Shown here: positions 57,908 through 61,308 of the stretch, piece after piece | How positions within the stretch are numbered: position 1 is the stretch's first letter | Layout: each line of letters begins with the position of its first letter | Source: Levilactobacillus bambusae | GTDB taxonomy: Bacteria > Bacillota > Bacilli > Lactobacillales > Lactobacillaceae | Direction: 5' to 3' | Assembly: GCF_003124125.1 (NCBI RefSeq) | Contig: NZ_QCXQ01000001.1 | Span: 186,001-250,000, forward strand | Length of the DNA stretch: 64,000 nucleotides | The notes under the pieces: generated by a model | What the model saw: the letters and a program-made list of their open reading frames with translations, nothing else | Databases searched by the model: none | Told to the model about the DNA's origin: nothing | Made by a program: the position numbers and the translations under genes

Positions 57908-57937
57908 TTGCATTATCAATGATTAATTCGATATGAT
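57908..57937 (+). promoter_or_regulatory. Promoter of the putative toxin mRNA
   Basis: TTGCAT (57908-57913) and TATGAT (57932-57937) are 18 bases apart. A start near 57944 would give a leader of about 110 bases before the toxin ATG and a transcript of about 275 bases to the terminator at 58184-58218. Confidence 0.55.
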
Positions 57938-57987
57938 ATACCTATCGTCAACCAAGGGAGTAGCTACCCAAGCATGGCGAGAGCGAG

Positions 57988-58047
57988 TTTATTAAACGGT
58001 TTAGCCTTCCCAATCGCGAATAAGGGGGCGAGAACATGTTTAATAAA
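57988..58047 (+). promoter_or_regulatory. Leader pairing that could mask the toxin ribosome-binding site
   Basis: TTTATTAAAC (57988-57997) and GTTTAATAAA (58038-58047) are exact complements. The second copy abuts the SD AGAGGTGA (58048-58055). Between them a smaller stem GCC-CCC/GGGGGC can form. Such sequestration of the SD in the full-length mRNA is common in type I toxin genes. Confidence 0.55.
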
Positions 58048-58055
58048 AGAGGTGA

Positions 58056-58157
58056 ATGGGCATTTACCTAGCATGGACATTGCTAGTATTGTCGCGCGCC
58101 GCAATTGGCTTTGCCAAAGCTTACGCGATAATAAAAAAAGCTAACCACAACGGTTAG
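58056..58157 (+). CDS. 33-residue hydrophobic peptide, putative type I toxin
   Basis: ATG 58056 directly follows AGAGGTGA and opens 33 codons to TAG 58157. The product starts MGIYLAWTLLVLSRAAI and continues GFAKAYAIIKKANHNG: one potential membrane helix (about 3-26) and a basic polar tail. Its size equals that of Fst from pAD1, but I see no sequence match to Fst, TxpA or BsrG. Around it are a promoter, a structured leader, a terminator and a convergent antisense RNA. A 56-codon frame (57974-58144) overlaps it without a well-placed SD and is less likely. The spacing from SD to ATG is short. Confidence 0.55.
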   Translation: MGIYLAWTLLVLSRAAIGFAKAYAIIKKANHNG

Positions 58158-58158
58158 C
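58133..58158 (-). terminator. Terminator of the antisense RNA
   Basis: GCTAACC (58140-58146) and GGTTAGC (58152-58158) pair perfectly; on the minus strand seven T residues follow (58139-58133). Confidence 0.85.
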
Positions 58159-58183
58159 CACCCAATAACCGAAACTCGCGACG

Positions 58184-58218
58184 GAACGGAGCCAGTGCAA
58201 TGGCTTCGTTCTTTTAAT
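58184..58218 (+). terminator. Terminator of the putative toxin mRNA
   Basis: GAACGGAGCCA (58184-58194) pairs with TGGCTTCGTTC (58201-58211) with one G-U pair, then TTTTAATTT follows on the plus strand. Confidence 0.75.
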
Positions 58219-58231
58219 TTCGATTACGGTT

Positions 58232-58260
58232 ATTATAGCATGGTAGATTACTCATGACAA
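58232..58260 (-). promoter_or_regulatory. Promoter of the antisense RNA
   Basis: On the minus strand TTGTCA (58260-58255) and a perfect TATAAT (58237-58232) are separated by exactly 17 bases. This is stronger than the opposing toxin promoter, as expected for an antitoxin RNA made in excess. Confidence 0.75.
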
Positions 58261-58360: not shown

Positions 58361-58403
58361 AACAAACTCCCCCACCCGAGTCATCGAGTGAGGGAGTTTG
58401 TTT
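58361..58403 (-). terminator. Terminator of the dehydrogenase-transporter operon
   Basis: AACAAACTCCCCCACCCGAG pairs with CGAGTGAGGGAGTTTGTT with minor mismatches, just downstream of the transporter on the minus strand. Confidence 0.7.
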
Positions 58404-61113: not shown

Positions 61114-61308
61114 ATGGCAGAAAACAAGAAGATGTCTCGTCAAGAAGCAGGTCACAAGGGTGGAGAAGTTACATCACAACGTCACGGTAAGGAATTTTAC
61201 CAGGACATTGGTCACGAAGGCGGCGAAACTACCGCCCAAACTCATGGATCAGAATTTTACCATGAAATTGGTGAAAAAGGTGGCCACGAGAGTCACAAAC
61301 GTTCTTAA
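61114..61308 (+). CDS. GsiB-like KGG-repeat general stress protein
   Basis: The 64-residue very hydrophilic protein has three repeats of the stress-induced KGG type: EAGHKGGEVTSQRHGKEFYQ, DIGHEGGETTAQTHGSEFYH and EIGEKGGHESHKRS. B. subtilis GsiB and plant LEA group 1 proteins share this repeat and protect against drying or other stress; the mechanism is not certain. SD GGGAGG precedes ATG 61114. It has its own promoter and terminator. Confidence 0.9.
   Translation: MAENKKMSRQEAGHKGGEVTSQRHGKEFYQDIGHEGGETTAQTHGSEFYHEIGEKGGHESHKRS

What the first reader, a model, noticed from the sequence alone, without database searches (positions are those of the whole stretch)
57908..58260. Putative type I toxin-antitoxin locus with an unrecognised 33-residue membrane peptide
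Seen directly: a short hydrophobic frame with an SD (58056-58157); a plus-strand promoter candidate and terminator; and on the minus strand a TTGTCA-N17-TATAAT promoter and a perfect hairpin with T7 that bound a convergent RNA of about 93 bases overlapping the 3' end of the frame. This is the layout of Fst/par and txpA/ratA systems. The peptide does not resemble the toxins I know, so it may be a new family. It sits between citI and a convergent operon, outside any visible prophage or plasmid remnant.
Basis: partly seen in the sequence, partly recalled or inferred. Interest (0 to 1): 0.88.

Follow-up and report, generated by a model that had tools for sequence, protein, structure and literature searches.

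The report
Candidate lactobacillus toxin-antitoxin peptide family
A tiny unannotated gene for a membrane peptide, paired with a predicted opposing antisense RNA, looks like one member of a large family of type I toxin-antitoxin-like loci in lactobacilli that the libraries searched do not name; whether the peptide is toxic has not been tested.

Summary
Comparison supports the interpretation. The peptide has relatives in 91 of 397 Lactobacillaceae genomes (E<=0.01), on chromosomes, plasmids and at least one prophage contig, with no convincing match in five libraries. The frame is under purifying selection (pN/pS 0.35; other sense frames 1.14-1.25). An antisense promoter scoring >=9 of 12 stands after the stop in 77% of 117 loci (shuffles 19%), and the last toxin codons double as the antisense terminator. 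A repeat beside the leader SD recurs in the 3' UTR; on average each antisense RNA fits its own 5' UTR better than others' (0.681 of 1, p 4e-6). Of 116 loci, 57 have a start behind a 7-base SD; 52 of these are out of frame with the toxin. Best reading: a new family of type I toxin-antitoxin loci with par-like repeat pairing and a hok/mok-like leader. Transcripts, coupling and toxicity are inferred. It is not Fst: signature and terminator layout differ.

The parts
58056..58157 (+). 33-codon hydrophobic, C-terminally basic peptide (putative toxin)
   Evidence: family and selection:
58036..58071 (+). 11-codon leader ORF, out of frame, overlapping the toxin start (MFNKRGEWAFT); my choice by eye, the script picked another start (57974) for this locus
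   Evidence: read; equivalent start behind a strong SD in relatives:
58022..58032 (+). leader SD-like AAGGGGGCGAG, partly paired to upstream GCCTTCCC in the predicted fold
58048..58054 (+). toxin SD-like AGAGGTG inside the leader ORF
   Evidence: second SD peak near -110 in relatives:
57908..57937 (+). weak sense promoter candidate TTGCAT-18-TATGAT
   Evidence: read; upstream promoter-like sites >=10 in 19 of 116 relatives against 3.8% of shuffles:
57953..57971 (+). 5' stretch with a copy of the repeat (CAAGGGAGTAGCTACCCAA), within a predicted hairpin
57983..57990 (+). GCGAGTTT, predicted long-range partner of AAACTCGC in the 3' UTR
   Evidence: family test of 5'-3' pairing:
57995..58020 (+). 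5' copy of the direct repeats, directly upstream of the leader SD
   Evidence: 20 of 2000 shuffles and 15 of 2046 other windows score as high; family:
58149..58181 (+). 3' copy of the direct repeats (58149-58173, then TCGCGA 58176-58181), opposite the antisense RNA
58183..58212 (+). sense terminator hairpin, short T-tract
58232..58260 (-). antisense promoter TTGTCA-17-TATAAT with TG
58133..58225 (-). predicted antisense RNA (antitoxin), ~93 nt; start inferred from the -10
58133..58159 (-). antisense terminator (hairpin plus T7) lying in the toxin's last codons and stop

Best explanation
A free-standing type I toxin-antitoxin locus of a new family. RNA I (from about 57944) carries a short leader ORF overlapping the start of a 33-residue single-helix membrane peptide. 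Its 5' UTR folds so that the leader SD is masked. RNA II (about 93 nt, convergent, stronger promoter) covers the sense terminator, the 3' copy of the direct repeats and the last codons of the toxin, ending in a terminator embedded in those codons. Because the repeats recur next to the leader SD, RNA II can also pair there and block leader translation and hence toxin translation. The same 3' repeat can pair inside RNA I with an upstream complement, a long-range closed form. If RNA II falls, the peptide is made and acts on the membrane. Supported here by comparison: translated frame, antisense promoter and terminator, better pairing of RNA II with its own 5' UTR. Inferred: transcripts, leader-toxin coupling, toxicity, membrane insertion.
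For: Family in 91 of 397 Lactobacillaceae genomes, 20 of 40 genera (9 of the 91 have only matches above E 1e-3). pN/pS 0.35 in frame against 1.14-1.25 in the other sense frames (100 loci, 233 non-independent pairs); one Ala in 100 of 100 with a free third base. Antisense promoter score >=10 in 50 of 117 loci against 3.9% of shuffles; 62 of the 69 scoring >=9.5 have the -10 end at +70 to +85; the sense strand there equals shuffles. Antisense A-run plus hairpin in 109 of 117; Ala codons GCT/GCC/GCA/GCG 32/31/35/10 at column 25 but 88/8/0/0 at column 32. RNA II against own 5' UTR: mean percentile 0.681, 13 of 69 at >=0.95, p 4e-6; 5'-3' long-range 0.770, 11 of 69, p 2e-10; three controls 0.518-0.527 (69 representatives). 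SD-side repeat, 3' repeat and an upstream complement change together (by eye). 52 of 57 starts behind a 7-base SD are out of frame with the toxin; 38 would be expected by chance. 35 of the 91 genomes carry two or more matches (my count).
Against: No transcript or toxicity data. The sense promoter is weak. For the window locus alone the repeat evidence is modest: percentile 0.719, 0.949 and 0.868, p about 0.01; its leader was picked by eye. An unanchored repeat test was weak (own pair ranked first in 5 of 115). In one search the reverse-complement control was also raised (0.697, 28 of 115), which I read as the 5'-3' pairing, and the terminator-region control slightly (0.568, p 0.008). With weaker SDs counted, 25 of 106 best starts are in frame with the toxin, and out-of-frame ones (81 of 106) are little above the two-thirds expected. 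In 59 of 116 loci no start codon, ATT, ATC and CTG included, lies 3-12 bases after a second SD. 12 of 116 loci have no ATG, GTG or TTG in the toxin frame (one, L139, holds masked bases).
Confidence: 0.75

Rival explanations
1. A small membrane protein with an ordinary cellular role, repressed by a cis-antisense RNA, not toxic at natural levels.
For: The comparative data show a translated, antisense-controlled peptide, not a toxic one; the window copy is the only one found in its genome.
Against: Patchy distribution, several matches in 35 of 91 genomes, plasmid and prophage carriage fit selfish or addiction loci better than a housekeeping peptide.
Confidence: 0.17
2. A diverged Fst/par locus whose toxin has drifted beyond recognition.
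For: Convergent RNAs, direct repeats, masked SD, 33 residues, Gram-positive host: as described for par in PMC7472228.
Against: PxxxG in 0 of 117 peptides, Trp in the last 14 residues in 11 of 117; no Pfam toxin family among the hits of 19 members at E<=1; separate terminators, with RNA II running into the toxin codons; leader ORF.
Confidence: 0.12
3. A structured non-coding RNA or bare intergenic hairpins; the frame is incidental.
For: Strong folds; part of the peptide's conservation comes from the antisense terminator.
Against: In-frame purifying selection also holds outside the terminator: pN/pS 0.52 (columns 8-17) and 0.26 (columns 18-25) against 0.86-2.23 in shifted frames.
Confidence: 0.03

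Closest known systems
par/Fst of pAD1 and its homologues, including Lpt of Lacticaseibacillus (PMC7472228 sections 1, 2, 4 read; PMC5608710 and PMC8003834 passages)
   Same: Two convergent RNAs; antitoxin pairs with the toxin mRNA at direct repeats near the start; intramolecular masking of the SD; small membrane peptide with charged tail.
   Different: No PxxxG and no conserved Trp; no shared bidirectional terminator: each RNA has its own, and RNA II ends inside the toxin codons, whereas the par overlap does not reach the coding region (PMC4147584 passage); added leader ORF.
hok/mok/sok of R1 (PMC4147584 passages; PMC7472228 section 4)
   Same: Leader ORF overlapping the toxin start; antisense RNA aimed at the leader; an mRNA form that must open first (5'-3' pairing in hok is recalled).
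   Different: RNA II is convergent at the 3' end here and reaches the leader region through repeats; unrelated peptide. Coupling not tested.
txpA/ratA (PMC4147584 passage), yonT/SR6 (start of abstract of PMC5848175 in a search listing), bsrG/SR4 (PMC6562991 passages; the 3' overlap is recalled) and C. difficile prophage type I loci (PMC7699646 passages)
   Same: Antitoxin overlaps the toxin mRNA at the 3' end; for C. difficile, hydrophobic peptide with lysine-rich tail on prophages.
   Different: No common family found by the profile libraries; direct-repeat targeting of a leader SD is not described in the passages I saw.

Membership tests
Type I toxin-antitoxin system (general) | Small peptide frame under selection | tested here: met
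Type I toxin-antitoxin system (general) | Antisense RNA gene with promoter and terminator | tested here: met
   By sequence and conservation only; no transcript data
Type I toxin-antitoxin system (general) | Antisense RNA complementary to its own toxin mRNA, better than to those of other loci | tested here: met
   As a trend over loci; not significant for the window locus alone (0.719)
Type I toxin-antitoxin system (general) | Peptide toxic, neutralised by the RNA | not testable with these tools
   needs expression in laboratory strains
Fst/par | Toxin signature: Trp between TM helix and charged tail, P/D/S/TxxxG in the TM | tested here: not met
   PxxxG 0 of 117, [PDST]xxxG 16 of 117, Trp in last 14 residues 11 of 117; no Fst_toxin hit in 19 members or in the genome. 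The review notes that Fst of pAD1 itself lacks the Trp
Fst/par | Shared bidirectional terminator | tested here: not met
   two separate terminators in the window, 58183-58212 (+) and 58159-58133 (-)
Fst/par | Direct repeats at the SD region and in the antisense gene | tested here: met
Fst/par | 5' stem-loop masking the SD | tested here: inconclusive
   predicted in the window fold; CCCCTC in 45 of 116 relatives, median place -164, before the SD peak at -140; not probed
hok/mok | Overlapping leader ORF | tested here: inconclusive
   57 of 116 loci have a start behind a 7-base or longer SD, 52 of them out of frame; translation of the leader not tested and its peptide not conserved
hok/mok | Leader translation required for toxin translation | not testable with these tools
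   needs reporter fusions
hok/mok | Hok-like peptide | tested here: not met
   no Pfam hit for the window peptide and no toxin family among the hits of 19 members

The most novel reading that the evidence does not exclude
A previously undescribed type I toxin family, found so far only in Lactobacillaceae, spread among chromosomes, plasmids and prophages. It is controlled by a three-element RNA switch (upstream complement, SD-side repeat, 3' repeat) in which the antisense RNA mimics the upstream complement, its terminator is written in the toxin's own codons, and the toxin is reached only through an out-of-frame leader, in some loci from a non-standard start codon.
Probability: 0.5. Interest if true: 0.82.

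Novelty: new variant of a known kind. Interest (0 to 1): 0.72.

Why it matters
If toxic, this adds a common addiction-type family to genomes of food, gut and urogenital lactobacilli that annotation passes over: no listed plasmid record had a feature under the match (that gene table is incomplete by its own description). Its many diverged copies give a natural set for testing how antisense specificity evolves, and it offers a compact case of codons doing double duty as a terminator on the other strand. It could bear on plasmid stability in species used as probiotics and give native tools for plasmid retention.

Tried and rejected
An unanchored repeat search between 5' and 3' regions was noisy and inflated by tandem copies; it led to anchored windows, chosen after seeing the sequences, so the duplex test on 69 representatives under 60% identity carries more weight, though its windows were set with the same knowledge. 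In one search the reverse-complement control was raised (0.697, 28 of 115), as was slightly the terminator-region control (0.568); far upstream was not (0.533). A programmed frameshift from leader to toxin was set aside because leaders lie in both other frames (49 and 32; 31 and 21 behind strong SDs). A gap test of the site in the genus failed: citI relatives in 14 other genomes are only 52-56% identical, with neither this element nor the transporter in the stretches held, up to about 1.5 kb each side. Rfam: no match reached its gathering score in the window region; in 20 relatives the matches at E<=0.1 were tRNA, tmRNA and others away from the element. No structure was predicted: a single short helix would say little. 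GenBank phages gave no match to two queries.

Literature: nine searches. I saw listings with starts of abstracts, capped (15 of 16; 12 of 30; 12 of 40; 10 of 104), and then three sections of PMC7472228 and passages of PMC10832526, PMC8003834, PMC4147584, PMC5643018, PMC5521070, PMC5608710, PMC7699646 and PMC6562991. None of this reports the family. The peptide-string search gave four papers, each holding only 'akayaii', which I take as chance (listing only). Fozo 2010 and the T1TAdb paper are not held, so prior mention there is not excluded.

Rows dropped: of 130 distinct hits I kept the 117 at E < 1e-5 other than L093, whose frame looked wrong (count); loci near contig ends or holding N fell out in some calls (n = 115, 116 or 117); one search used 100 ungapped ones, one search used 108. 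Shuffles are my own simple ones (single bases or blocks of two), not exact dinucleotide shuffles; searches compare with other loci instead.

Full report
Observation. The sense promoter is weak (TTGCAT-18-TATGAT, 8 of 12, my reading). The predicted sense RNA is unusually structured (z -6.25), the antisense RNA less so (z -3.42); the 5' part alone is unremarkable (z -1.87).

A family. One copy was found in the window's genome. A single-sequence search found matches at E<=1 in 61 of 301 Lactobacillaceae genomes. A 19-row profile found matches at E<=0.01 in 91 of 397 (20 of 40 genera; 9 of the 91 only above E 1e-3). A draw of the order gave 25 of 395, 24 of them in the family; the one outside (E 0.003) is doubtful. 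In the genus 13 of 36 match at E<=0.1, but only three, the window's genome among them, strongly. A scan of the genome-contig collection (84,980 species genomes by its description) with the pattern AYxIIKKAN gave 43 confirmed loci of 77 pattern matches, all with Lactobacillaceae names: Fructi-, Loigo-, Limosi-, Pauci-, Lenti-, Compani-, Ligi-, Agri-, Furfuri-, Lacticasei- and Lactobacillus. Plasmid records: 9 with the window peptide, 19 with one relative and 3 with another, none with a feature listed under the match. GenBank phages: none for two queries. IMG/VR: 17 loci; in the one I examined, L231, neighbours match a phage transcriptional activator, HNH endonuclease and terminase small subunit (8 of 9 ORFs of 90 or more codons searched). 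In one search, 35 of the 91 genomes carry two or more matches (my count), some a few hundred bases apart.

It is translated, by inference from selection. Over 100 loci and 233 pairs at 70-97% identity, pN/pS is 0.35 in the toxin frame and 1.14-1.25 in the other two sense frames; the three antisense frames give 1.14, 1.16 and 0.41, the last because its degenerate positions coincide with those of the toxin frame. Alanine 25 is invariant in 100 of 100 while its third base is nearly free (1.89 bits).

The antisense gene is conserved. In 117 loci the best minus-strand promoter 60-150 bases after the toxin stop scores 9.38 on average against 7.44 in shuffles; 50 reach 10 or more (43% against 3.9%); of 69 scoring 9.5 or more, 62 have the -10 end at +70 to +85; the sense strand there behaves like shuffles (7.55 against 7.59). 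An antisense A-run plus hairpin is present in 109 of 117. The toxin's last codons are bent to it: Ala at column 25 uses GCT/GCC/GCA/GCG 32/31/35/10, Ala at column 32 uses 88/8/0/0; Ile at column 28 is ATA in 96 of 108 codons there; Lys at columns 30-31 is AAA 186, AAG 17 (all 17 at column 31), against 44 and 17 at column 24 (p 0.0003).

How the antisense RNA could find the start. A repeat lies directly upstream of the leader SD and again about 15-35 bases after the toxin stop. Own pairs match better than pairs across loci (mean percentile 0.766, 40 of 115 at 0.95 or more; the reverse-complement control is raised too, 0.697). In 69 representatives under 60% identity, RNA II binds its own 5' UTR better than others' on average (0.681, p 4e-6), and the mRNA's own 5' and 3' ends pair better (0.770, p 2e-10); three controls lie at 0.518-0.527. 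In a 14-member alignment three elements change together: upstream AGUAACUU with SD-side and 3' AAGUUACG in most, AGCAGUUU or AGUAGUUU with AAACUACG or AAACUAUG in L109 and L062 (my reading of the alignment); of the pairs predicted there, 10 of 18 in the 3' part and 3 of 13 in the 5' part show double changes. In the window the repeats are 57995-58020 and 58149-58173 (20 of 2000 shuffles and 15 of 2046 other windows score as well), and the fold pairs 57983-57990 with the 3' UTR. Taken alone the window locus is not outstanding (percentiles 0.719, 0.949 and 0.868).

Leader. SD-like motifs peak near -140 and -110 from the toxin stop; both occur in 46 of 116 loci against 4% of shuffles. Counting any SD of four bases or more, the best start is out of frame in 81 of 106 loci that have one, of 116, little above chance; but behind an SD of seven bases or more it is out of frame in 52 of 57, where 38 would be expected, and 56 of the 57 lie at -150 to -115. 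In the window I take 58036-58071 as the leader; the script picked another start there. Toxin frames lack ATG in 65 of 116 and ATG, GTG and TTG in 12, and in 59 of 116 no candidate start lies 3-12 bases after a second SD. I infer translational coupling as in hok/mok, where translation of mok is required for hok (PMC4147584, passages); it is not shown here, and how the toxin starts in many loci is open.

What it is not. No convincing match in Pfam, NCBIfam, PADLOC, PHROGs or PDB: only weak hits of one or two of 19 members (best Pfam 0.0037). Fst traits from PMC7472228 (sections 1, 2, 4 read) fail on the peptide signature, the shared terminator and the family profile. It resembles par in repeat pairing and hok in the leader, but is a member of neither. 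The median best 19-residue hydropathy is 1.92 (1.55 in the window; 88 of 116 reach 1.6) and the last 14 residues carry a median charge of +3, in keeping with a membrane helix with a basic tail.

Place. No close relative holds the same site, so how it came there is unknown.

Verdict. Conserved design makes a type I toxin-antitoxin family the best explanation (0.75); the untested steps are transcription, leader coupling and, above all, toxicity.

Noticed in passing
L006 (stops at 126 minus, 1265 minus, 1587 plus, 2699 plus; strand-own coordinates): Two convergent pairs of different subtypes of this family stand in a row, as if a two-locus unit had been duplicated.
   Followed up: partly
L009, L021, L045, L030, L113 and others: 12 of 116 toxin frames have no ATG, GTG or TTG; other start codons at the expected place, or decay, are possible.
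   Followed up: partly
window 61114-61308: Small KGG-repeat stress-type protein (Pfam KGG; LEA_5 below its cut-off).
   Followed up: no
window 58361-58402: Imperfect inverted repeat after the transporter gene, likely its terminator; a weak partial match at G000:C1:354232 (E 0.16).
   Followed up: no
L231 4001-4063: Family member between a phage activator and HNH/terminase genes on an IMG/VR contig; host probably a Limosilactobacillus, guessed from a matching peptide family member.
   Followed up: partly
L009, L023, L045: In this subgroup the repeat is built on TTCCGGAA, so direct and inverted relations coincide.
   Followed up: no
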